Positions 18,507 through 61,680 of a stretch of 64,000 nucleotides of DNA are shown piece after piece (within the stretch, counting starts at the first letter, position 1; every line of letters begins with the position of its first letter). The position numbers were made by a program, and so were the translations under genes. Origin of the DNA: Baekduia soli (GTDB lineage: Bacteria > Actinomycetota > Thermoleophilia > Solirubrobacterales > Solirubrobacteraceae); assembly GCF_007970665.1 (NCBI RefSeq), contig NZ_CP042430.1:1240001-1304000 (forward strand), given 5' to 3'. The notes beneath the pieces were generated by a model. The model was not told the DNA's origin, ran no database searches, and worked only from the letters and a program-made list of their open reading frames with translations.

Positions 18507-18521
18507 GGCCCTGGCAGGGCC
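18507..18521. terminator. short hairpin between convergent genes
   Basis: GGCCCT and AGGGCC arms with a GGC loop, ending at the last base of the response-regulator stop codon. It is placed to stop transcription from both sides, but is short and lacks a T tract. Confidence 0.35.
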
Positions 18522-18886
18522 TATGCCAACTCATCCACCAGGCGCAGCAGGTCGAGCGGGCTGAACGGCTTGGTGAGGAAGAGGTCGGCGCCCGCCTCGC
18601 GGGCGCGGACCTCGTTCTCGCCGGCGCCGGCCGCCGTCAGCATCACGATCGTCGCGCTGCCGCCCGCGCCCTCCTGCTCGCGCAGGGCGCGGCAGGCGGT
18701 GATGCCGTCCATGCGGGGCATGTCGATGTCCAGGAAGACGAGCTGGGGGCGGATCTGCGCCGCGCGCTCCACGGCCTCGACGCCGTTGGCCGCCTCGTGC
18801 AGCGCGAAGCCGGCGACGTCCTCCAGCGTGGTCGAGACGAGCTTGCGGATGAACGGGTCGTCGTCGACGATCAGCACGCTGCGCAT
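18521..18886 (-). CDS. single-domain response regulator (CheY-like)
   Basis: A 121-residue receiver domain with no output domain. Acidic pocket VDDDPF, phospho-acceptor Asp53 (VFLDIDMPRMDG), Thr in MLTAAG and Lys in TKPFSP are intact, so it should be phosphorylated. The ATG at 18886 overlaps the stop of the HD-GYP gene as TGATG, so the two are co-translated. Probably a phosphate sink or a partner-binding switch for the kinase and HD-GYP genes upstream. Confidence 0.92.
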   Translation of the reverse strand: MRSVLIVDDDPFIRKLVSTTLEDVAGFALHEAANGVEAVERAAQIRPQLVFLDIDMPRMDGITACRALREQEGAGGSATIVMLTAAGAGENEVRAREAGADLFLTKPFSPLDLLRLVDELA

Positions 18887-19629
18887 CAGTCGGACTCGAG
18901 TCGGATGCGGTCCAGCGTCGTGATCGGGATGTCCATGAACGCCGTGACGACCTGCGGGTCGAAGTGGCTGCCCGAGGCGTCCTGGATCATCGCCCGCGCC
19001 TCCTGGACCGGCGACGGCGGCCGGTAGGGGCGCAGCGTGGTGAGCGCGTCGAGCACGTCGGCGACGGCGAACACGCGCGCGGCCAGCGGGATGACCTCGC
19101 CCTCCAGCGCGTCGGGGTAGCCCATGCCGTCCCAGCGCTCGTGATGGTGGCGCACGACGAGCTTGGCCTCGCCGAGGAAGTCGATCTCGCGCAGGATCTC
19201 CCAGCCCACGATGGGGTGCTTCTCCATCAGCGCGCGCTCGTCGGGCGTCAGCGGCTCGGGCTTCCAGAGGATCGCGTCGGGCACCGCGACCTTGCCCACG
19301 TCGTGCAACAGGAAGCCGAACTCCACCTCGGGGTCGTCGGCGAACGGCGCGTCCATGACGCGCGCGATCTCCATCCCGTAGGCGGCCACCCGCTCGGCGT
19401 GCTTGCCCGTGTAGGCATCGCGCGCCTCGACGGCGTTGCACAGCGCGCGCACCGTCGCCATGTAGGAGCGGCGCAGCTCGTGGCGGCGCTCGCGCTCACG
19501 CTTGAAGGTCTCGCGGAGGTCCGCGGCGTAGCGCTCGAGCTGGCGCTCCTTCTCGGCCGCCGAGCGCTCGACGGTGGCCAAGCGACCCTGGAGCACCGAG
19601 ATCTCGGTGGTGATGCTCTCGCCTGCCAT
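18886..19629 (-). CDS. HD-GYP domain protein (probable cyclic-di-GMP phosphodiesterase)
   Basis: 247 residues: an N-terminal coiled coil (about 10-55, ending in a KRERERRHELRR segment) and an HD-GYP domain. The metal ligands His109-Asp110 (LLHDVGK), the HHH segment at 161-163 and the GYP triplet at 170-172 (WDGMGYP) are all present, so it should be catalytically competent toward c-di-GMP. Unlike many relatives it has no fused receiver; the separate response regulator downstream and the kinase upstream probably supply that input. The start MAGESITTEIS lies 17 nt after the kinase gene. Confidence 0.9.
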   Translation of the reverse strand: MAGESITTEISVLQGRLATVERSAAEKERQLERYAADLRETFKRERERRHELRRSYMATVRALCNAVEARDAYTGKHAERVAAYGMEIARVMDAPFADDPEVEFGFLLHDVGKVAVPDAILWKPEPLTPDERALMEKHPIVGWEILREIDFLGEAKLVVRHHHERWDGMGYPDALEGEVIPLAARVFAVADVLDALTTLRPYRPPSPVQEARAMIQDASGSHFDPQVVTAFMDIPITTLDRIRLESD

Positions 19630-19646
19630 GTCGTCAGCCGACGAGC

Positions 19647-22084
19647 CTACAAGTCCGCGGCGGCCGCGGGTTCCAGGAGCGCGAGGACGGCGGCACCGGC
19701 CTCGTCGACCGGGATCGGGTCGGCGTCGAGCCGCGCGAGGCCCGGGAAGCCCTCCGCGTCGTCGGCGGACACGATGACGATCGACCGCTTCAGGCGCCGC
19801 CCGCGCAGGTCCAGGCCGGCGATCGCGGCCTCGACGTCGGGCAGGCCGGCGTCGACGAGCGCGACCTCGAAGCGCCGGCTCGCGCACAGCCGGGCGGCCT
19901 CGAGCGGGGTGCTGGCCCACTCGTGCTCGATGCCGAGCTTCTCGAGCGTGTCGTTGAGGTGGGTGCGCACGCCGGCGCGGCCGACGGCCAGCACGCGGAC
20001 ACGGCCGGCCATGACGGCGGCGCCGAGCGCGTCGGCCAGCTCGTCGGCGTCGATCGGCTTGCTGACGACCCACTCGCCCGACAGCGCCTCGCGGCCGGAG
20101 AAGACGGAGACCACGACGACGGGCAGCTCGGCCAGGCGCTCGTCGGCCCGCAGCTCGCGGAGGACCTCGAACCCGCTCATCCCGGGCATGAGCACGTCGA
20201 GCGTCATCGCGTCGAACTCGCCGCTGCGCAGGCGCGCGAGGGCGGCCTCGCCGTCGAGGACGATCTCGCACTCCACCCCCAGGGCTCCAGGCGCTCGGCG
20301 ATGAGACGGGCCGTCTCGGGCTCGTCGTCCATCACGAGCACCTTGCGCCCGCGCAGCGCGTCGCGCGGGCGGGTGACCACCCCCGGCGCGGGGGCGGCCG
20401 GCAGCGTGATCGCGAACGTCGTGCCCTCGCCCGGGGTGCTCGCGACGTCGATCGTGCCGCCGTGCAGGTCGACGAGCGACTTGACGATGGACAGGCCCAG
20501 GCCGGTGCCCGGCGTCCCCGTGCTGCCCGAGCCGCGCGAGAAGCGCTCGAAGACGTGCTCGAGCTCGCCGGGATCCATGCCGCGCCCGGTGTCGCTGATC
20601 TCGATCCGCACCCCGCCCGGCGAGCCGCCGGCTCGCACGGCGACCGTGCCGCCCTCGTCGGTGTAGAGGTGCGCGTTGGTGACGAGGTTGGTGAGCATCT
20701 GGCGCAGCCGCGAGGCGTCGGCCAGCACGCGCGGGGTGTCGGGCTCGACATCGAGCTCCAGGCGCTGGTCCTTGGCCTCGATGCGCCCGTGCAGGAGCGT
20801 GACGACGTCGTCGAGGGCCTCGTGCACGTCGATGGCGCGACGGTGGACCTCCACGCGGCCGGCCTCCAGGCGCGCGACGTCGAGCAGGTCGTTGACGAGG
20901 TCGACGAGGCGGTTCGTGCTCACGAGGACGATGTCGAGGAACTCGCGCTGGCGGGGGTCGAGGCCCTCGCCCGCGCTGAGGAGCTCGACGAAGCCCTTGA
21001 TGGAGGTCAGCGGCGAGCGCAGCTCGTGCGAGGCGGTGGCCACGAACTCGCTCTTGAGCCGCTCCAGGCGGGCGCGCTCGGTCGCGTCGCGCAGGGTCCA
21101 CACGACGCCGCCTCCGCCGTGCTCGTCCAGCCGGGCGGCCGTGGCGGCCAGCGTGCGCCCGTCGTGGTCGAGGAGCACCTCGACGCCGAGGGCCTCGTCG
21201 GTGGCGGGGAGGACGAGGCCGGCGAGCTCCGGCGGGTGGCCGACGCGCAGCTCGGGCGTGTACTGCATGGCGCGTGGGTTGGCCGAGGCGACGAGGCCCT
21301 CGTCGTCGACGAGCACGAGCCCGTCGCCGAGGCTGCGCAGCGTGACGTCCAGGCGCCTTCGCTCGGCCTCGAGCTTCTCGCTGGCGCGCTCGAGGTCGGT
21401 GGCCATCGCGTTGAAGGACCGGCCGAGCTGGCGCAGCTCATCGGGGCCGCGCTCCTCGTCGACGCGCGCCGTGAGGTCGCCGCCGGCGACACGCGCCGAG
21501 GCGCCGACGAGCTCCTCCAGCGGGCGCCGCACGCCGGCCAGCAGCAGCGCGACCAGGGCGATCGCCCCGGCCAGGGCCAGGCCGCCGGCGGCGGTGATCG
21601 AGGCCAGCGCCCGGCGCGAGTCGCCGCGGGCGTGCTTGTCGGCCGCGGCCAGCCGCGCGTCCTGGCGGCGCTGCAGGGCGTTGATCGGCGCCCGCGCTCC
21701 GAGGGCTGCCGCGGCCGGTGCCCCCGGGCGGCGCAGGACGGCCTGGGCGGCGCTCGCCTGCTGGATGAGCTTGAGGCTGGCGGCGTCGTCGACGGCCTTC
21801 GCGCGCGTGTCGGCCAGGGCCTGCTCGTAGGCCGTGCGCGCGCGGGCCGTGGAGGCGCTGGCCTGGCCGGAGCGGCGGGCCCGCAGGGTGGCCTCCTCGA
21901 CGACGGAGGCGGCGAGGAGCTTGCCCGCGGAGGCCTTGACCTCGAACGCATGGGCGAGCTGGGCCTCGTAGTGCTGGCGCGACGAGTAGAGGGCCCCCAC
22001 GCCGAAGCCGGCGATCGCCGTGAGGGCGATCGTCAATCCGAGGAGCGCGAGTTGGACCGAACGCGCGATGGAAAGCCGCCGCAC
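19647..22084 (-). CDS. hybrid sensor histidine kinase with two C-terminal receiver domains, interrupted by one frameshift
   Basis: From the GTG at 22084: TM helices at 10-32 and 163-185 around a helical extracytoplasmic segment, a HAMP domain, a PAS-like region (VTLRSLGDGLVLVDDEG), HisKA with phospho-acceptor His353 (SHELRSPLTS) and an HATPase domain (NAHLYTDEGG, DTGRGMD, GTGLGLSI). A receiver domain begins RKVLVMDDEPETARL, but its frame ends early at 20204. The sequence continues in the next frame from GVECEIVLDG (phospho-Asp in LDVLMPGMSG) into a second, degenerate receiver ending at 19647. The switch falls in a run of five C at 20276-20280, where one more base restores the frame. No residues are lost, so a read error or very recent mutation is likely. 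First gene of a kinase/HD-GYP/response-regulator operon. Confidence 0.85.
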
Positions 22085-22091
22085 GGCTAGC

Positions 22092-22097
22092 AAGCTA
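22092..22097 (-). promoter_or_regulatory. -10 element of the hybrid kinase operon (leaderless)
   Basis: TAGCTT with 7 nt to the GTG at 22084; it supports the GTG over the longer open frame. Confidence 0.5.
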
Positions 22098-22224
22098 CCG
22101 GGCGGCGGCGACGCGCGTGCACGGATTCGGCAGGTCTGCACACCCGCCCCGCTTCCCGGAGTCATGGGAGCACGCTGCGGATCCCGCCGCGGCGTCCCGC
22201 GCCGCCTGCCACGATGGCGGGTCG

Positions 22225-23067
22225 ATGACCGTCGTGCTCGCCATCGCCGCCGCCGCGTCCTGGGGGCTGGCCGACTTCCTGGCCGGGCTGGCCAGCCGGC
22301 GGGTGGCCGTCCCGGTGGTCCTCGCGCTGGTGGAGGGCGGCGGGCTCGTCGTCGTGCTCGCGGTCACGCTGGCGGTGCACGAGCCCTTCTTCTCCGACCG
22401 CCTCGACGCGGTGGGCGCGATCGCCGGCGGCCTGTCCGGCGTGCTGGCGCTCGGGCTGTTCTACCGGGCGCTGGCCATCGGCACGATGAGCATCGTGGCG
22501 CCGATCTCGGCGGCCGGGTCGGCCGTCGCGGTCGTGGTCGGCGTCGCCGCCGGCGACCGGCCGTCGGCGATCGCCGCGGTGGGCCTGGCGGGCGTGTTCG
22601 CCGGCGTCGTGCTCGCCTCGCGCGAGGCCTCGGACGACGACCCGGCCGGCGCGGCGGACCGGCGCCTCAGCGTGCTCCTGGCGCTCGGGGCCGCCGTGGG
22701 CTTCGGCGGCTTCTTCGCGCTGACGGCGAGCCCGGCCCGCGCGTCGGTGCTCTGGATGCTCGTCCTGGCGCGCGCCTCGGCGCTGCCCTTCGTCCTGGCG
22801 CTCGTGGCGCGCACGCGCCCGGCGCTGCCGGGGCGCCGGCTGGGGCTCGGCCTGGCCGCCGTCGGGCTCGTCGACCTCGCCGCCACGGCGTTCATCGGCC
22901 TAGCCGACCGCCACGGCGACCTCAGCGTGGTCGCCGTCCTGGGCGGGATGTACCCGGTCGTCACCGTGCTGCTGGCCGCCGCGGTGCTCGGGGAGCGCCT
23001 GCGCGCGGCGCAGCTGCTCGGCGTGACCCTGGCGCTGACCGGTGTGGCGGCGGTGGCGGCGTCGTGA
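22225..23067 (+). CDS. EamA/DMT-family transporter
   Basis: A 280-residue integral membrane protein with about ten hydrophobic helices arranged as two repeats of five, the drug/metabolite transporter layout. The first repeat begins VVLAIAAAASWGLADFLAGL and the second near VLLALGAAVGFGGFFALTAS; each ends in a helix typical of EamA domains (for example TVLLAAAVLGERL). The substrate is unknown. The ATG at 22225 is the first in-frame start before the helices. Its stop overlaps the next start as GTGA. Confidence 0.85.
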   Translation: MTVVLAIAAAASWGLADFLAGLASRRVAVPVVLALVEGGGLVVVLAVTLAVHEPFFSDRLDAVGAIAGGLSGVLALGLFYRALAIGTMSIVAPISAAGSAVAVVVGVAAGDRPSAIAAVGLAGVFAGVVLASREASDDDPAGAADRRLSVLLALGAAVGFGGFFALTASPARASVLWMLVLARASALPFVLALVARTRPALPGRRLGLGLAAVGLVDLAATAFIGLADRHGDLSVVAVLGGMYPVVTVLLAAAVLGERLRAAQLLGVTLALTGVAAVAAS

Positions 23068-23978
23068 CCGGCACGCTCGCCGCCGCGACGTTCGAGTTCG
23101 CGCCCCTGCAGATCGCGCCGGGGCTGGCCAGCGCGGGGCTGTACGCCCGCCGCTGCGCGACGCTGGCCGGCACGCCGCGCGCGGTGCCGCGCGAGCGCCA
23201 GGTGGCCTTCTACGCGGGCGTCGCGGTCATCCTCACCGTGCTCGTCTCGCCGCTGGCCGGGCTGAGCGACGAGCTCTTCTGGGCCCACATGGTCGAGCAC
23301 CTGGTGATCGCCGACCTCGGCGCCCTGCTCATCGTGCTCGGCCTGACGGGGCCGCTGCTGGCCCCGGTCCTGCGGATCCCGGTCTTCGACCGGCTGCGCG
23401 TGCTGGCCCACCCGCTCGTGGCGCTGCCGCTGTGGGCGATCGACCTCTACGCCTGGCACGTGCCGGTGCTGCACGTCGCCGCCGTCCACCACGACGGGCT
23501 CCACGCGCTGCAGCACCTGTGCTTCATCTTCTTCGGCGCCAACGTCTGGATGTGCCTGTTCGGCCCGCTGCCCATGCCGTCGTGGTTCGGGACGGGGTGG
23601 AAGGCGGGCTACATCCTCGGGGTGCGCCTCGTGGGCGCCGCGCTGGCCAACGCCCTGCTGTTCGGCGGCGGCGCGTTCTACCACGTCTACGCCGCCGGCG
23701 AGGCCGCCCACGGCATCTCGGCCGAGGGCGACCAGGTCGTCGCCGGCTCGGTGATGATGGTCGAGGAGTCGCTGCTGACGATCGGGCTGTTCTGCTGGCT
23801 CTTCCTGCGGGCGGCGCGCCAGAGCGATGAGCGCCAGGAGCTGCTGGACCTCGCCGCCGCGCGCGGCGTCGACCTCACGCCCGAGCGCGCGGCGCGAGCC
23901 GTCGCGGCGGGCCGCGCCGGCGAGCTGCGCGCCCGCATCGAGCGCGGCCCGGGCGCCGGCCCGACGCCTCAGGCCTGA
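23064..23978 (+). CDS. ctaG: cytochrome c oxidase assembly factor CtaG (caa3 type)
   Basis: A 304-residue membrane protein with about seven helices and the histidine-rich features of the CtaG family: MVEHLVIADLGALL, WAIDLYAWHVPVLHVAAVHH, LHALQHLCFIFFG and a late MMVEESLL helix. The family is needed for copper insertion or assembly of caa3-type oxidase in Bacillus. It has a hydrophilic C-terminal tail of about 50 residues. The GTG start overlaps the transporter stop. No oxidase genes are in the window. Confidence 0.87.
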   Translation: MTGTLAAATFEFAPLQIAPGLASAGLYARRCATLAGTPRAVPRERQVAFYAGVAVILTVLVSPLAGLSDELFWAHMVEHLVIADLGALLIVLGLTGPLLAPVLRIPVFDRLRVLAHPLVALPLWAIDLYAWHVPVLHVAAVHHDGLHALQHLCFIFFGANVWMCLFGPLPMPSWFGTGWKAGYILGVRLVGAALANALLFGGGAFYHVYAAGEAAHGISAEGDQVVAGSVMMVEESLLTIGLFCWLFLRAARQSDERQELLDLAAARGVDLTPERAARAVAAGRAGELRARIERGPGAGPTPQA

Positions 23979-25069
23979 CGGGTCAGCGCCTCGGCACGCG
24001 CGGCGAGGCTGACGACGCCCTCGCCGAAGGACTTCAGGTACGGGTCGTCGCTCAGGCCGGTGGAGGCGCGCTTGTAGTTGCCCTCCATGAACACGATCGA
24101 CTTCCACAGGGCCAGCGTCTGGTACCAGCGGATGTCGGTCATCGAGCGCCCCGAGCGCTCCTCGTAGCGCGCCAGCAGCTCCGCGCGCCGCGGCCAGCCC
24201 TCTTCGCGGGTGACGGGCGACAGCTCGAACGTGTTGCCCGGCGGGTCGTCGCGGTCGGCGTACATCGTGCAGAAGTAGCCGAGGTCGGCCAGCGGGTCGC
24301 CGATCGTCGACATCTCCCAGTCCAGGACGGTGACCACCCGCGCCGGGGGCTGCAGCGCGAGCATCGTGTTGCCCAGGCGGTAGTCGCCGTGGACGATGGT
24401 CGCGGGGGGCGAGTCGGGCAGGTTGGCCTTCAGCCATGCGCCGACGGACTCCACGGCCGGGATCTCGCGGGTCTTGTTGTGGTCCCACAGCCCGAGGAAG
24501 CGCCGCACCTGGCGCTCCGTGTAGCCCTCAGGGCGCCCGAAGCCCTCCAGCCCCGCCTCGCGCCAGTCCACCGCGTGGATCTCGACGAGGGTGTCGACGA
24601 GCTCCTCGCCGGCCCGCCGGCGCTCCTGCGGCGTGTCGAGCTCGGCGGGCATGGTCTTGGTGATCACGTGCCCGGAGATCTCCTCCATGACGTAGAACGG
24701 CGCGCCGATGACCGAGTCGTCGTCGCAGACGGCCAGGACGCGCGGCACGCGCGCGCGGCCCTCCAGCGCGCGCAGCACCCGCGCCTCGCGCAGCATGTCG
24801 TTCGCGCTGGGCGGCAGCGGCGGCCGCGGCGGACGGCGCAGCACGAAGGTCGCCCCGCCGCGCGCGAAGCGGTAGGTGGCGTTGGAGTGGCCGTCGCCGA
24901 TCGCGCTGATCTCCGGCTCGCCCTCGCCGAGCCCGGACCGGTCCAGGAACGCGAGCAGGGGGTCCAGGACGAGCAGCGGCACGCGGGCGTTGGCCTCGCC
25001 CTCGGCGTGGGTGCGGACGATGTCGTCGGCAGCGATCTCGTGGGGCATCAGGGGACGGAACTCTCCCAT
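23969..25069 (-). CDS. APH/choline-kinase-like phosphotransferase (ACAD10/11 N-terminal type)
   Basis: A 366-residue protein kinase-like phosphotransferase. It shows ISAIGDGHSNATYRF (nucleotide loop), the ATP-binding Lys/Arg region in FVLRRPPRPPLPPSA, the catalytic loop VHGDYRLGNTML and the metal Asp in VLDWEMSTIGDPLADL. These spell the family seen fused to acyl-CoA dehydrogenases or standing alone in fatty-acid-degrading actinobacteria, not true aminoglycoside resistance enzymes. The substrate is probably a hydroxyacyl-CoA or similar (inference). Its last bases overlap the end of ctaG, tail to tail. The start may alternatively be the ATG at 25048. Confidence 0.85.
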   Translation of the reverse strand: MGEFRPLMPHEIAADDIVRTHAEGEANARVPLLVLDPLLAFLDRSGLGEGEPEISAIGDGHSNATYRFARGGATFVLRRPPRPPLPPSANDMLREARVLRALEGRARVPRVLAVCDDDSVIGAPFYVMEEISGHVITKTMPAELDTPQERRRAGEELVDTLVEIHAVDWREAGLEGFGRPEGYTERQVRRFLGLWDHNKTREIPAVESVGAWLKANLPDSPPATIVHGDYRLGNTMLALQPPARVVTVLDWEMSTIGDPLADLGYFCTMYADRDDPPGNTFELSPVTREEGWPRRAELLARYEERSGRSMTDIRWYQTLALWKSIVFMEGNYKRASTGLSDDPYLKSFGEGVVSLAARAEALTRQA

Positions 25070-25154
25070 GCCGCGGGGTCGGGCGCTCGCTCGCGGTCGC
25101 CGCGCGCGGACCCGTCGCGCAACTTCGGTGGCCGATAGCGTGTCCCCCTTCGTG

Positions 25155-26552
25155 ATGCCGCTCCTCCGACGCCTCCTCCCGCTGACCCTCCTCGCGCTGC
25201 TCGTGCTGCCCGCGCTGCCCGCCCAGGCCAAGCACACGCAGGAGGTCACCTTCGAAGCGCCACGCGACCTCTTCGACGTCGCCAAGCGCGATGCCGCGTT
25301 CTCCGAGATCGACAGCCTGGGCGCCAACGCGCTGCGCGTCGTCCTGTACTGGCACGACGTCGCCCCGGCGCCCGACGACCGCGTCAAGCCCAAGCTCGAC
25401 ATGACCGACCCGGCCACCTACGACTGGTCGCGCTACCAGCCCGTGCTCGACGAGGCCGCGCGCCGCGGGTGGACCGTGCAGGTCACCGTGTCGGGCCCGG
25501 TCCCGCGCTGGGCGACCAACGGCGCGCGCGACACGGTCACGCGGCCGAGCCCCAACGAGTTCCGCATGTTCATGATGGCGGTCGCCAAGCAGTTCGGCTC
25601 CGAGGTCTCGCGCTGGTCGATCTGGAACGAGCCCAACCACCCGCAGTTCCTCGGGCCCCAGTACGACAGCCGCCACCGGCCCGTCTCGCCGACGGTCTAC
25701 CGCGGCCTGTACGCCGCGGCGCTGCGCGGGCTGGCCGCCGTCGGCGACAGCAAGCCCGTCCTCATGGGCGAGACGGCGCCGACCGGCACGGGCCGGGACG
25801 TGGCCCCGCTCACGTTCCTGCGCCAGGCGCTGTGCCTGAGCGACACCTACAAGAAGAAGGGGTCGTGCGCGAAGCTGCGCATCGACGGCTACGCCCATCA
25901 CGCCTACTCCACGCGCCTGGGCCCGTACTACAAGCCCGACGGCCCCAACAACGTGACGATCGGCGTGCTCTCGCGGTTGACGGGCGCGCTGGACAAGGCG
26001 GCGAGGGCCGGCGCGGTCAAGGCCCGCCTGCCGCTGTACCTGACCGAGTTCGGCGTGCAGTCCACGCCCGACCCGCTCTACGGCGTGAGCCTGCAGCGCC
26101 AGAACGAGTTCCGCGACGACGCGGAGAAGATCGCCTACGACAACCCGCGCGTGGCGGCGTTCTCCCAGTACCTGCTGACCGACGACGCGCCGCTGACCGG
26201 CGTGCCCGCCGAGCAGCGCTACAGCGGCTTCGAGTCCGGGCTGCGCACCTCGGACGGCAGGGCCAAGCCCGCCCTGGCCGGCTTCCGGCTGCCGCTCGTC
26301 GTCAAGAGGGGCAAGGGCGCCAAGGTCACGCTGTGGGGCCTGGTGCGCCCGGCGCGCGCGGTGACCAAGGTCGTCGTCCAGCAGCGCGACAAGGGCCGGG
26401 CGTTCGCGACGATCGCGACGGTGACCACGAACGCGCGGGGCGTCTGGACGGGCCGCGCCGGCCTCGGCGGCTCGGGCCGCGAGTGGCGCGTGCGCTGGAC
26501 GGCGCCCGACGGCACCGTCTTCACCGGCCCGGCCACGCGCGCGCTGAAGTAG
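25155..26552 (+). CDS. secreted glycoside hydrolase (clan GH-A fold, GH5/GH39-like)
   Basis: A 465-residue exported enzyme. A signal peptide (about 1-25, ending LPAQAK) is followed by a TIM-barrel domain with acid/base Glu159 in WSIWNEPNH and probable nucleophile Glu298 in LPLYLTEFG, spaced as in clan A glycosidases. The last 80 residues (VKRGKGAKVTLWGLVRPARA onward) form a beta-rich C-terminal domain. The polysaccharide attacked cannot be told. A TAGCGT hexamer at 25136-25141 precedes the ATG by 13 nt; a GTG one codon upstream is an equal start candidate. Confidence 0.85.
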   Translation: MPLLRRLLPLTLLALLVLPALPAQAKHTQEVTFEAPRDLFDVAKRDAAFSEIDSLGANALRVVLYWHDVAPAPDDRVKPKLDMTDPATYDWSRYQPVLDEAARRGWTVQVTVSGPVPRWATNGARDTVTRPSPNEFRMFMMAVAKQFGSEVSRWSIWNEPNHPQFLGPQYDSRHRPVSPTVYRGLYAAALRGLAAVGDSKPVLMGETAPTGTGRDVAPLTFLRQALCLSDTYKKKGSCAKLRIDGYAHHAYSTRLGPYYKPDGPNNVTIGVLSRLTGALDKAARAGAVKARLPLYLTEFGVQSTPDPLYGVSLQRQNEFRDDAEKIAYDNPRVAAFSQYLLTDDAPLTGVPAEQRYSGFESGLRTSDGRAKPALAGFRLPLVVKRGKGAKVTLWGLVRPARAVTKVVVQQRDKGRAFATIATVTTNARGVWTGRAGLGGSGREWRVRWTAPDGTVFTGPATRALK

Positions 26553-26581
26553 TCCCTGCACGGGCGGCGTCCGCGGGCCGC

Positions 26582-26587
26582 TAGATT
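26582..26587 (+). promoter_or_regulatory. -10 element of the SixA-like gene (leaderless)
   Basis: TAGATT with 6 nt to the ATG at 26594. Confidence 0.55.
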
Positions 26588-26593
26588 GCGCCG

Positions 26594-27109
26594 ATGGGGT
26601 CCCAGCTCTGGTTGCTGCGCCACGGCGAGGCCGAGCCGCACGACGCGCGGCCGGACCCCGAGCGGCGCCTCACGCCGCGGGGCGAGCAGCAGTCCCGTGC
26701 GGCGGGGGCCGGGCTCGCGGCGCTGGAGATGACGTTCCAGGCGGTCTACACCAGCCCAAAGGTCCGTGCCCGCGACACCGCGCTGATGGCGTGCGCCGAG
26801 CTCGGCGTGCAGCCCGTCGAGCACGCGGCGCTGGCCGAGGGCTTCGACGTCGGCGAGGCCCACGCGCTCCTGCTGGCCCACGGCCCCCACGCGCGGGTGC
26901 TCGTCGTCGGTCACAACCCGGATTTCGCCCAGGTCGTGGCCGACCTGACGGGCGCGGCGATCGACGTCAAGAAGGGCGGCGTCGCCGGCGTGCGGCTGGC
27001 CGGCGCCACACGCGGCACGCTCATCGCGCTGCTGCGCCCGCGTGAGCTCAGCCGGCTGGCGGCGCGTGACCGCGCCGCGGCCGTCCAGGCCGCCGCCACC
27101 TCCGACTAG
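26594..27109 (+). CDS. SixA-like histidine phosphatase
   Basis: A 171-residue member of the histidine phosphatase superfamily. The phospho-accepting His lies in LWLLRHGEAEP at residues 6-16, the Arg pair in RLTPRGEQQSRAAG and YTSPKVRARDTA, and the second catalytic His in VLVVGHNPDF. Compact length and the HGEAE motif place it with SixA, which dephosphorylates phosphohistidine in signalling proteins. The actual target is unknown. A TetR gene follows 17 bp downstream. Confidence 0.88.
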   Translation: MGSQLWLLRHGEAEPHDARPDPERRLTPRGEQQSRAAGAGLAALEMTFQAVYTSPKVRARDTALMACAELGVQPVEHAALAEGFDVGEAHALLLAHGPHARVLVVGHNPDFAQVVADLTGAAIDVKKGGVAGVRLAGATRGTLIALLRPRELSRLAARDRAAAVQAAATSD

Positions 27110-27126
27110 CCTGTGGCCCACGGCCC

Positions 27127-27732
27127 ATGCTGGACTCCTCCGACGTCACGCGCCTGGACGGGCGCGCCGCGCGCTCCCAGCGCTCGCGCCTGGCGATCGT
27201 CGACGCGCTCATCGCGCTGCTGCAGGAGGGCAACGTCCAGCCCAAGATCGAGGACATCGCCGCCCGCGCCGGCGTGGCGTCGCGCACGGTGTTCGGGCAC
27301 TACCCCGACGGCGAGGCGCTGTTCGCCGCGGTGGGCGAGCGCCAGGCGCGCAGCCTCGAGGCGCTGCTGACGCCGATCGCCCCCGGCGGCCCGCTGGCCG
27401 AGCGCGCGGCCGCCGTCGCCCTCCAGCGCGCGACGCTGTACGAGGCGATCGCGCCCGTGCGGCGCGCGGCCCTGCTCATGGAGCCGCTCAGCCCGTCGGT
27501 CCAGGCGACGCTCGAGCGCTTCCGCGCCGCCAAGCGCGCCGCCGTCCTGGGCGTCTTCGCCGCCGAGCTGGACGCGATGGACCCCGCACGACGCGACGCC
27601 GCGGCGGCGGCGCTGGGCGCCGCGGCCTCGTGGGCGGCGTGGGACGCGCTGCGCCGCCAGCAGGGGCTGTCGGTCGACGCCGCGCGCGCGGCGCTCCAGC
27701 ACGCCGTCGGCGCCCTGGTGCGCCCGGGCTGA
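27127..27732 (+). CDS. TetR-family transcriptional regulator
   Basis: A 201-residue regulator with an N-terminal helix-turn-helix (about 20-66: IEDIAARAGVASRTVFGHYP) and a variable helical ligand domain. The ligand is unknown. It lies between the SixA-like and the thioredoxin/NHL genes, 3 nt before the latter, so it is probably in one transcription unit with it. TAGCCT at 27107-27112, overlapping the sixA stop codon, is a possible -10, 14 nt before the ATG. Confidence 0.85.
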   Translation: MLDSSDVTRLDGRAARSQRSRLAIVDALIALLQEGNVQPKIEDIAARAGVASRTVFGHYPDGEALFAAVGERQARSLEALLTPIAPGGPLAERAAAVALQRATLYEAIAPVRRAALLMEPLSPSVQATLERFRAAKRAAVLGVFAAELDAMDPARRDAAAAALGAAASWAAWDALRRQQGLSVDAARAALQHAVGALVRPG

Positions 27733-27735
27733 GCC

Positions 27736-29437
27736 GTGCTGGACCGCGTCCGGGTCCGCGCGCCCGAGCTCGAGGGCGCCGGCGGGTGGATCGGCTCCGA
27801 CGGCCTGACGCTCGCCGGGCTGCGCGGCCGCATCGTGCTCCTGGACTTCTGGACCCTGGCCTGCGTGAACTGCCAGCGCGTGGTCGAGGAGCTGCGCGGC
27901 CTGGAGCGGCGCTTCGCCGACGTCCTGGTCGTCGTCGGCGTGCACTGGCCCAAGTTCCCCACGAGCACGACCACGCCGCCGTCCGCGCCGCAGTCGCCCG
28001 CCACCGCGTCCGCCATCCCGTGCTCGACGATCCGGGCCTGGTGACCTGGGACGCCTACGCGGTGCGCGCCTGGCCGACGCTCGTGCTCGTCGACGCCGAG
28101 GGCCGCGTCGCGCTGACGGTCTCCGGCGAGGGGCACGCCGTGACCCTGGCCTCGGCGATCGAGGCGCTCGTCGAGGAGGCGCAGGCCGCCGGGACGCTGT
28201 CGCCCGGGGGGTCGAGGTCGACGGCGAGGCGCCGGGCACCGGGGAGCTGGCCTTCTGCGGCAAGGTCGCCGTCGAGGAGGGCGCCGACGGCCCGCCGCGC
28301 CTGGCCATCGCCGACACGGGGCACGACCGCGTGCTGGTGACCACGCTGGAGGGCGAGGTCCTGCACGAGCTCGACGGCCTCTACCAGCCCCAGGGGGTGC
28401 GCTTCGACGGCGCCGGGTCCACGCACGTGCTCGTCTGCGAGACCGGCGCCGACCGCGTGTGGCGCATCGCGCTGGACGACGGCACCCGCGAGCTGGTCAC
28501 CGACCGCCTGGCCTCGCCGTGGGACGTGATCCGCTGGCGCGGGCACCTCGTGATCGCCGAGGCGGGCCGCCACCGGCTGTGGGCCGTCGACCGCGACGGC
28601 GAGCTGCAGGTCCTCGCCGGCACGGGCGCCGAGGCATTGCACGACGGCCCGGGGCTGGAGGCGGTGCTGGCCCAGCCCTCGGCGCTGGCGGTCACCGCCG
28701 ACGACGACCTGGCGTTCCTCGACGCGGAGGCCGGCGCGCTGCGCGTGCTGCGGGCGGGCACGTTCGTCGTGCAGACGCTGGCGGGGGCGGGGCTGTTCGC
28801 CTGGGGCAGCGACGACGGCGGCCGCGACCGCGCGCGCATGCAGCACCCGCTCGGCCTGGCCACCGGCCCCGACGGCGCGCTGTACGTCGCCGACACGTTC
28901 AACGGCCTGGTGCGCGTCTGGCGCGGGTCGCACCTGTGGACGGTCCCCATCGACGGCTTCGCCGAGCCCGGCGGGCTGGCCGTGCTGGCCGACGGGCGCC
29001 TCGTGGTCGCCGACACGGGCAACCACCGCGTCGTGCTCGTCGACCCGGTCATGGCCGGCGCCGTGGCGCTCGACGTCGGGCGCCCCGGGTCCGTCGACGC
29101 CCCGGGCCCGCAGCCCGCCGCCGTCGCAGGGACGATCGTGCAGCCCGAGGGCTCGGTGCTGGATCTCACGCTCGACCTCGACACGGGCGACGACGTGCTC
29201 GACCCCGCCGGCGGCCCGCCCGTGCGCGTGCGCGCCGTCGCGACCGACCCGGCGCTGCTGCGCGAGCCGACGAGCTGGGCCCTGCCCGCGCTGCCCGCGC
29301 AGGTGCGCCTCGCGCTGGGGGAGGGGTCGGGACGGGTCACCGTGGAGCTGCTGGCCGCGACCTGCGGGCCCGACGCGTGCCGCCTGCGCCGCACGCAGCG
29401 CGCCTACGACGTGCTGCTGACCGCGGGCGGGGCCTGA
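27736..29437 (+). CDS. NHLRC2-like protein: thioredoxin-fold domain plus NHL repeats, interrupted by two frameshifts
   Basis: Read across three frames it makes one colinear protein of about 567 residues. A thioredoxin-like domain comes first (LLDFWTLACVNCQRVVEEL, with CVNC as the CxxC; then AYAVRAWPTLVLVDAEGRV). NHL beta-propeller repeats follow (YQPQGVRFDG, HPLGLATGPDGALYVADTFN, GGLAVLADGRLVVADTGNHR). The frame changes in a run of four C at 27957-27960 and a run of six G at 28206-28211; one extra base at each restores the whole frame without loss. The family (human NHLRC2) is of uncertain biochemical role. It starts at GTG 27736, three nt after the TetR stop. Confidence 0.85.
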
Positions 29438-58585: not shown

Positions 58586-60145
58586 CTAGAGCAGGCCGAG
58601 CGACCGGCCGGCGTCGGCGGCCAGGTTGAGCAACGGCGACGGGATGATCCCGAAGAACAGCACGGCGGCGCCGGCCAGGACCGCCACGGCGGTGACCTCC
58701 AGCTGCGGGCGCTCCAGGCCCTCGGCGGCCGGGTCGGCGCCCGCCAGGCGCGGCGCGCCCGCGGCGTCGGACGTCGCGAGCTCGCTGCCGGCGGCCGGGC
58801 GCATCCAGACCGCCGCGACGACCTTGAGGTAGTAGGCCAGGGAGATCATCGAACCCACGACGATGATGATGCCCAGCCACGTGTACCCGCCGTCGGAGGC
58901 GGCGTTGATCAGCGCGAACTTGCCGATGAAGCCCGCCGTCGCCGGCATGCCGGCCAGGGAGAGCATCGAGAGGGTCAGCGGCCAGGCCAGCAGCGGCCGG
59001 CTCAACCCGATCCCGGCGACGGCGGAGATGTCGTCGCCCAGGCCGGTCTCGCGCTCGCGGGCGATGATCACCGCGAAGGCGGCGACGTTCATCATGAGGT
59101 AGACGGCCAGGTAGAACACCGTGGCCTTGACGCCGGTCTGGGAGGCCACCAGGACGCCGGCCAGCAGGTAGCCCGCCTGCGCCACCGAGGACCAGGCGAG
59201 CAGGCGCTTGAGCGAGGACTGGGTGATCGCGCCGACGTTGCCGACGATGATCGTCACCGTGGCCAGCGCGGCCAGCGCCGGGCCCCAGTCGGCCTGGGCG
59301 TCGATGAGCGCGACGTCCAGGAGGCGGATCGCGGCGCCGAACGCGGCGGCCTTGGTCGCGACGGCCATGAACGTCGTGATGGGGGTCGGGGCGCCCTCGT
59401 AGACGTCGGGCGTCCACTGGTGGAACGGGGCGACGGAGGCCTTGAACCCGAGGCCGACGATGGCCAGCGCGATGCCGGTCAGCAGCAGCGCGTCGTGGGC
59501 CGTGCCGCCGGCGACGGCGTTGGCGATGCCGCGGAAGTCGGTGTCGCCCGCGGCGCCGTAGAGGAAGGCGAGGCCGTAGAGGAACGTGGCCGAGCCGACC
59601 GAGCCGATGATGAGGTACTTCAGCCCGGACTCCAGCGAGCGCTCGCGGCGCATCTCCGTCGCGCACAGGACGTAGAGCGGAACGGAGAGCAGCTCGAGCC
59701 CGAGGAAGACCGTCACGAGGTTCTGCCCGGCGGCCAGCACGACCATGCCGGCCACCGACACGAGCAGCATCGCGTAGTACTCGCCGTGGGCGGCCTCGCG
59801 CGGGGCGAGCGCGCGCCAGCTCAGCAGCACCGTGGCGATTCCGGCGACGCTCACGATCCAGGTGATCATGATCGTGAGCTCGTCCATGCGCAGGGCGCCC
59901 TGCGAGCCCTGGGCGACGAAGAGGTCCTTGGGGTGGCCCCACTGCCAGACGCCGAGGCCGATGGCGGCCCCGAACGCGGCGATCGCCAGCAGCGGCACGA
60001 CCTGCTCGCGGATGACGCGGCCGCGCAGGAGGCCGGCCATGAGGACGATGAGCGCCCCGCCCAGCAGCGCGAGGACCGGCGAGGCTCCCGCCCAGTCGAT
60101 GGAGGGCTTGACGACGGCGGCGAGGATGGGGGACACGTGGGTCAC
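58586..60145 (-). CDS. nuoN: NADH-quinone oxidoreductase subunit N
   Basis: A 519-residue antiporter-like subunit of complex I with about 14 helices. The TM5 glutamate is kept (TVFLGLELLSVPLYVL), as are the Lys and His of GFKASVAPFHQWTPDVYEGAPTPI. A hydrophilic insert near residues 450-475 (PAAGSELATSDAAGAPRLAG) lies before the last helices. The GTG at 60145 overlaps the nuoM stop. It is the last gene of the nuo cluster; no further nuo gene follows. Confidence 0.96.
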   Translation of the reverse strand: MTHVSPILAAVVKPSIDWAGASPVLALLGGALIVLMAGLLRGRVIREQVVPLLAIAAFGAAIGLGVWQWGHPKDLFVAQGSQGALRMDELTIMITWIVSVAGIATVLLSWRALAPREAAHGEYYAMLLVSVAGMVVLAAGQNLVTVFLGLELLSVPLYVLCATEMRRERSLESGLKYLIIGSVGSATFLYGLAFLYGAAGDTDFRGIANAVAGGTAHDALLLTGIALAIVGLGFKASVAPFHQWTPDVYEGAPTPITTFMAVATKAAAFGAAIRLLDVALIDAQADWGPALAALATVTIIVGNVGAITQSSLKRLLAWSSVAQAGYLLAGVLVASQTGVKATVFYLAVYLMMNVAAFAVIIARERETGLGDDISAVAGIGLSRPLLAWPLTLSMLSLAGMPATAGFIGKFALINAASDGGYTWLGIIIVVGSMISLAYYLKVVAAVWMRPAAGSELATSDAAGAPRLAGADPAAEGLERPQLEVTAVAVLAGAAVLFFGIIPSPLLNLAADAGRSLGLL

Positions 60146-61680
60146 GGCGTGGGTGCGGCGGTCGGGGCGGCGGCCTGCTGGGGCGGCTGCGAGCCGGAGA
60201 TCTCGCTCGCGGCCTGCACCGACCGCGTGATGGCGGGCTCGCCCTTGTGCAGGGCCAGCTGCGGGTACAGGGCGAAGAAGAGGATGACCGCGACGAGCGG
60301 CACGAGCACGAGCCCCTCGCGGAGGTTCAGGTCGCGCGAGGCGACCTCGGTGCCGACGCGGTTGTGCATCGCGCGGATGAAGAGCCGCAGCGCGTAGACG
60401 GCGGCCATCCCGACGCCCGTGAACGCGATGGCCGCGATGACGAGCTTGGAGTGGAAGACGCCGAGCAGGATGAGGAACTCGCCGGCGAAGTTCGACGAAC
60501 CGGGCATGGCCAGGGTCGCGAGCGACACGATGAGGAACAGCCCGGCCAGCACGGGCGCGCGGAACGCGATCCCGCCCATGTCGCGGATGTCCTCGCTGCC
60601 CCCGGCGCGGTCGGCGAGGTAGGCGACGATGACGAAGGCGGGGGCGACGACCAGGCCGTGGTTGACGGCCTGGATGATCGCGCCCTGGGCGCCGTCGCCG
60701 TTCAGCGCGAAGACGCCGAGCGTGATGAAGCCGAGCTGGGCGATCGACGAGTAGCCCAGGATGAGCCGGGTGTCGGTGGTCGTGAAGGCCATCGCCGACC
60801 CGTAGAGGATCGACCCGAGCGCCAGGACGAGCATGAGGTCCTGGAAGTGGGCGCTGGCGTCGGGGAACAGCGGCGTGACGATGCGCAGGAAGCCGTAGGC
60901 GGCGACCTTGGACAGCACGGCCGAGAAGACCGCCAGCACCGGCATCGGCATGTTGCGGTAGCCGTCGGGCATCCAGCCGTGCACCGGGAAGGCGGGCATC
61001 TTGACCCAGAAGGCCGCCGCGAAGCAGAGGAAGATCCACTCCTGCGAGCCCTTGGGCAGCGGAAAGGCCGCGAGGTCGCTGAACGCGAAGCTCAGGTCGT
61101 GGCCGGACTGCTGGGAGACCAGCACGCCCGTGGCGATCGCCGCGGCGAGCATGAGCAGCGAGCCGACCAGCGTGTAGATGAACAGCTTGGTGATCGCGGC
61201 GATCCGCGTCGACTCCGGGCCCCAGATGCCGGTCAGGAACAGGAACGGCAGGAGCATGAGGTCGAAGAACAGGACGAAGAGCGCGAGGTCCTGGGCCATC
61301 AGCGCGCCGAGCACGCCGCTCTCGGCCAGCCCGAAGAAGAAGAAGAACAGGCCGGGGCGCGGGAGGTCGGCCTCGGACTTCATCGCGGCCCAGATCACGC
61401 ACATCAGGAAGATGAACGCGGCCAGGGCGATGAGGAACAGGTTGAGCCCGTCGACGCCGAGCTTGTAGTGGATGCCGAGCTGGCGGATCCACATCTGGTC
61501 GGTGAGGTCCTGCAGGCCGCGCGCGGCGCGGTCGAAGTCGGCGATGGCCCAGATCGACCAGGCGAACGTCGCCAGCGCGCCGAGGACGGCCAGCGCGCGG
61601 GAGGCGACGCCGGGCAGCAGCATGCCGACGAACGCGGCGGCGGCGGGCAGCCAGAGGGGGATGGAGAGGGGGATGCTCAC
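60142..61680 (-). CDS. nuoM: NADH-quinone oxidoreductase subunit M
   Basis: A 512-residue antiporter-like proton-pumping subunit of complex I. TM7 carries the Lys in FWVKMPAFPVHGWMPDGYR. In TM5 the glutamate of the usual FWE motif is replaced by Asp140 (LFVLFFDLMLLP), which keeps the charge on a shorter side chain. A Pro/Ala/Gln-rich tail (QPPQQAAAPTAAPTP) ends the protein. It starts with GTG, 7 nt after nuoL. Confidence 0.96.
   Translation of the reverse strand: MSIPLSIPLWLPAAAAFVGMLLPGVASRALAVLGALATFAWSIWAIADFDRAARGLQDLTDQMWIRQLGIHYKLGVDGLNLFLIALAAFIFLMCVIWAAMKSEADLPRPGLFFFFFGLAESGVLGALMAQDLALFVLFFDLMLLPFLFLTGIWGPESTRIAAITKLFIYTLVGSLLMLAAAIATGVLVSQQSGHDLSFAFSDLAAFPLPKGSQEWIFLCFAAAFWVKMPAFPVHGWMPDGYRNMPMPVLAVFSAVLSKVAAYGFLRIVTPLFPDASAHFQDLMLVLALGSILYGSAMAFTTTDTRLILGYSSIAQLGFITLGVFALNGDGAQGAIIQAVNHGLVVAPAFVIVAYLADRAGGSEDIRDMGGIAFRAPVLAGLFLIVSLATLAMPGSSNFAGEFLILLGVFHSKLVIAAIAFTGVGMAAVYALRLFIRAMHNRVGTEVASRDLNLREGLVLVPLVAVILFFALYPQLALHKGEPAITRSVQAASEISGSQPPQQAAAPTAAPTP

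What the first reader, a model, noticed from the sequence alone, without database searches (positions are those of the whole stretch)
20276..28211. Three single-base frameshifts, all in C/G homopolymers, in two otherwise intact genes
The hybrid kinase (C5 at 20276-20280) and the thioredoxin/NHL gene (C4 at 27957-27960; G6 at 28206-28211) each become full-length, fully colinear proteins if one base is added to the run. No conserved residues are missing. Three homopolymer deletions in 8 kb with no other decay point to undercalled homopolymers in the assembly rather than pseudogenes.
Basis: partly seen in the sequence, partly recalled or inferred. Interest (0 to 1): 0.6.

Follow-up and report, generated by a model that had tools for sequence, protein, structure and literature searches.

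The report
Undercalled homopolymers in a genome assembly
Two bacterial genes look broken because three bases are missing next to short runs of C or G, and the same kind of missing base turns up all over this genome, even in genes the cell cannot do without, so these are almost certainly sequencing errors and not real mutations.

Summary
All three runs are at the stated coordinates. Every relative that aligns cleanly has one base more there, and these are the only intragenic frame changes in the window shared by all informative relatives. Purifying selection continues on both sides of each shift.

A frame-aware scan of 1.264 Mb of this genome finds 46 strong deletion-type and 8 insertion-type frameshifts; 1.222 Mb of three same-genus assemblies gives 2 and 6. 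The deletions sit next to runs of 4 or more (57% against 13% of random positions in the same genes). They hit the only murD, lysA and (twice) 2-oxoglutarate dehydrogenase genes. At ettA and murD a relative reads G5 where this genome reads G4. Three per 64 kb is this genome's average.

Gene decay, phase variation and programmed frameshifting fit poorly. One detail is softened: at 27957-27960 most relatives read CCCG, so the lost base need not be a C. Reads were not available. This is ordinary and matters for annotation only.

The parts
19647..22165 (-). Hybrid histidine kinase gene (HAMP, HisKA, HATPase_c, receiver domain), read in two frames
   Evidence: Pfam HAMP, HisKA and HATPase_c before the shift and Response_reg after it; one open frame of 856-857 codons in G001 and G006
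20276..20283 (-). Site lacking one base (C5 run, or the adjacent GGG run)
   Evidence: One base fewer than nine relatives; HMM gain 36.8 nats
27736..29437 (+). Thioredoxin-like/NHL-repeat gene, read in three frames
   Evidence: Thioredoxin-like part (below Pfam cut-off, CVNC motif) and NHL repeats; one open frame in relatives such as G006 and G013
27957..27960 (+). Site lacking one base (C4 run; most relatives read CCCG here)
   Evidence: One base fewer than seven relatives; HMM call at permissive cost
28203..28211 (+). Site lacking one base (CCC followed by G6)
   Evidence: One base fewer than the relatives that align cleanly; HMM gain 43.7 nats

Best explanation
The three frameshifts are consensus errors of the assembly: single bases dropped at or next to short C/G runs, as happens when homopolymer length is undercalled in long reads and not corrected with accurate reads. 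In the living organism the hybrid kinase and the thioredoxin/NHL gene are most likely intact and full-length. Shown: the missing bases relative to relatives, unchanged selection on both sides of each shift, and a genome-wide excess of deletions at C/G runs that includes single-copy core genes. Inferred: the sequencing platform and the step at which the bases were lost.
For: Relatives have one base more at each site and these are the only shared intragenic phase changes in the window. Codon-position divergence keeps the coding pattern on both sides. 46 strong deletions and 8 insertions in 1.264 Mb of this genome against 2 and 6 in 1.222 Mb of three same-genus assemblies. 26 of 46 deletions within 6 nt of a run of 4 or more against 12.8% of random positions in the same genes; 9 of 46 against 2.4% for runs of 5 or more. 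Only murD split in two frames, only lysA split, the single 2-oxoglutarate dehydrogenase gene broken twice. Direct G5-to-G4 differences at ettA and murD. [quoted passage not shown] false deletions peak after runs of four to five.
Against: No reads or platform information were available. The G/C run-length spectrum shows no gross truncation, so only a small share of runs can be affected. About 40% of the deletion calls have no run of 4 or more within 6 nt, though HMM positions are approximate. The exact lost base is ambiguous at all three sites.
Confidence: 0.95

Rival explanations
1. Real recent loss-of-function mutations: young pseudogenes in the kinase and the thioredoxin/NHL gene.
For: Each gene is truly split in the sequence as given, while relatives are intact. 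Very young pseudogenes would show no further decay.
Against: The same lesion occurs at a similar rate across the genome and in single-copy core genes. The window is average for the genome. Two independent single-base deletions in one otherwise clean gene are improbable as real events.
Confidence: 0.03
2. A real mutator or slippage-prone lineage, or phase-variable tracts, so that run lengths vary among cells.
For: The affected sites are C/G runs and are spread over the genome.
Against: Runs of 4-6 are below usual phase-variable lengths (own knowledge). Slippage gives both signs, but 46 deletions to 8 insertions were seen. Relatives do not carry the runs at these positions. A broken only copy of murD would be lethal (own knowledge).
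Confidence: 0.01
3. Programmed -1 frameshifting or transcriptional slippage restores the full-length proteins from the sequence as it stands.
For: Runs of C or G are in principle slippery, and both genes keep selection downstream of the shift.
Against: No relative has a shift or a comparable slippery run at these positions. The same would have to hold for dozens of unrelated genes.
Confidence: 0.01

Closest known systems
Residual homopolymer indels in long-read-only bacterial assemblies (PMC8812927; PMC12007338)
   Same: Single-base false deletions, associated with runs of about four to five, splitting otherwise intact genes, including core genes
   Different: Platform not known here; the affected runs are nearly all C/G, as expected in a 73-75% G+C genome
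Frameshifted pseudogenes
   Same: A single indel splits a gene that relatives carry intact
   Different: No further decay, unchanged selection across the shift, and the same lesion in single-copy core genes
Programmed -1 ribosomal frameshifting or transcriptional slippage
   Same: Two overlapping frames that join at a run
   Different: Neither the run nor the shift is conserved in relatives

Membership tests
Long-read homopolymer consensus error | Excess of single-base indels, mainly deletions, across the whole assembly | tested here: met
   46 deletions and 8 insertions in 1.264 Mb against 2 and 6 in 1.222 Mb of relatives
Long-read homopolymer consensus error | Association with homopolymer runs | tested here: met
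   57% within 6 nt of a run of 4 or more against 12.8% in the null; G5 to G4 at ettA and murD
Long-read homopolymer consensus error | Hits genes regardless of importance | tested here: met
   murD, lysA and Kgd, each present once, are split; rpoC is intact
Long-read homopolymer consensus error | Accurate reads show the longer run | not testable with these tools
   No reads available
Pseudogene | Relaxed selection or further decay | tested here: not met
   Third-position-biased divergence on both sides of every shift; no other intragenic shift shared by relatives
Programmed frameshift site | Slippery site and shift conserved in relatives | tested here: not met
   Relatives are in one frame and lack the run
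Phase-variable tract | Long simple repeat with mixed lengths in the population | tested here: inconclusive
   Runs are only 4-6 long and not conserved; mixed lengths need reads

The most novel reading that the evidence does not exclude
The present run lengths are real, and this lineage tolerates or corrects many -1 shifts at C/G runs, in core genes too, by slippage during transcription or translation or as a mixed population.
Probability: 0.015. Interest if true: 0.7.

Novelty: not a real feature. Interest (0 to 1): 0.1.

Why it matters
It matters for annotation. Extrapolated from the sample, about 190 genes of this 5.2 Mb genome would carry a strong deletion-type shift and be annotated as pseudogenes or fragments. 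Claims of gene loss, split genes or missing pathway steps drawn from this assembly should be checked against reads first.

Tried and rejected
A first tblastn-based junction search gave many false junctions from upstream extensions of stop-to-stop frames, and first HMM scorings overcalled because of closed slice ends; both were replaced. Further weak HMM candidates in the window (for example 35084, 36471/36691, 60164) lie at gene boundaries or in weakly coding stretches and were not counted; the phase change at 60127-60208 has opposite sign in two relatives. The G/C run-length spectrum was tried as an independent sign of undercalling and showed no gross truncation.

Full report
What was checked. 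The window is bases 1,240,001-1,304,000 of a single-contig 5.21 Mb genome with 95.55% estimated completeness. The nearest named relatives are metagenome genomes of Conexibacter and Solirubrobacterales. The C5, C4 and G6 runs are at the stated coordinates.

Comparison with relatives. At the kinase site nine relatives, at 68-83% identity, all have one base more. At 27957-27960 all seven distinct aligned relatives have one base more. At 28204-28212 the relatives that align cleanly have one base more; in others neighbouring indels blur the position. A scan of the whole window for persistent phase changes against three relatives leaves these three as the only intragenic ones shared by all informative relatives. 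In G001 and G006 the kinase lies in one open frame of 856-857 codons, and the thioredoxin/NHL gene lies in one open frame in relatives such as G006 and G013.

What the genes are. The kinase has HAMP, HisKA and HATPase_c domains before the shift and most of a receiver domain after it. The shift falls inside the receiver, between the acidic pocket (MDDE) and the phospho-acceptor Asp (LDVLMPG), so no conserved residue is missing (sequence; motif assignment from general knowledge). The second gene has a thioredoxin-like part (below Pfam's cut-off, with a CVNC motif) and NHL repeats. Divergence by codon position keeps the coding pattern on both sides of each shift (for the middle part of the second gene the printed phases are rotated by one because of the anchor I gave). 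There is no sign of decay.

Genome-wide test. I wrote a two-strand, frame-aware hidden Markov model, trained on each genome's own codon use, that may skip or add a base at a cost, and scored each call by the likelihood lost when that call is forbidden. With a gain of at least 25 nats and at least 100 nt of gene on either side, this genome has 14, 19 and 21 calls in three blocks totalling 1.264 Mb: 46 deletions and 8 insertions. Three same-genus assemblies (G001, G006, G005) give 3, 0 and 5 calls in 1.222 Mb: 2 deletions and 6 insertions (binomial p about 1e-11 for the deletions). Two of the three window sites pass this threshold and the third is found at a lower one, so the count is a lower bound. 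The expected number of strong calls per 64 kb is about 2.7, so the window is average for this genome.

Homopolymer association. Of the 46 deletions, 57% lie within 6 nt of a run of 4 or more, against 12.8% of random positions in the same genes; for runs of 5 or more it is 20% against 2.4%. At two sites a relative shows the change directly: ettA reads GGGG where G001 reads GGGGG in a 94%-identical stretch, and murD reads GGGG where G003 reads GGGGG. At other sites, including the three in the window and lysA, the lost base could belong to either of two adjacent runs or be a neighbouring base.

Core genes. The only murD above cut-off in this genome is split into two frames, while eight relatives match in one piece. 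lysA is split while ten relatives have it whole. The 2-oxoglutarate dehydrogenase (Kgd-type) gene, for which one copy was found, is broken twice. ettA and a nicotinate phosphoribosyltransferase gene are also hit. rpoC is intact. A peptidoglycan-making bacterium without MurD is not expected to live (established knowledge), so at least this shift must be an error, and the window's three share its type and rate.

Conclusion. The pattern is that described for long-read-only bacterial assemblies: hundreds of residual errors, mostly homopolymer indels (PMC8812927), with false deletions most frequent after runs of four to five (PMC12007338). What remains unproven is the cause, since neither reads nor platform could be seen; the run-length spectrum shows no gross truncation, so only a small share of runs is affected.

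Noticed in passing
G000:C1:2987324-2988603 (murD) and 4599664-4600880 (lysA), outside the window: Both core genes are split by a single missing base next to a C/G run; any completeness or auxotrophy inference from this assembly would be misled.
   Followed up: yes
window 18521-22165: The hybrid kinase is followed on the same strand by an HD-GYP-like gene (18886-19629) and a receiver-domain gene (18521-18877); the order is collinear in several relatives, which suggests one signalling unit.
   Followed up: no
G001:C1:820737 and 697169; G005:C1:2746450: The control assemblies hold a few strong insertion-type frameshift calls with no run of 4 or more nearby; real frameshifts, joined neighbouring genes or errors of another kind.
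   Followed up: no
G000 as sampled: This genome has more G/C runs of 4-6 per 100 kb than G001 and G006 and slightly more than G005, partly explained by its higher G+C.
   Followed up: partly
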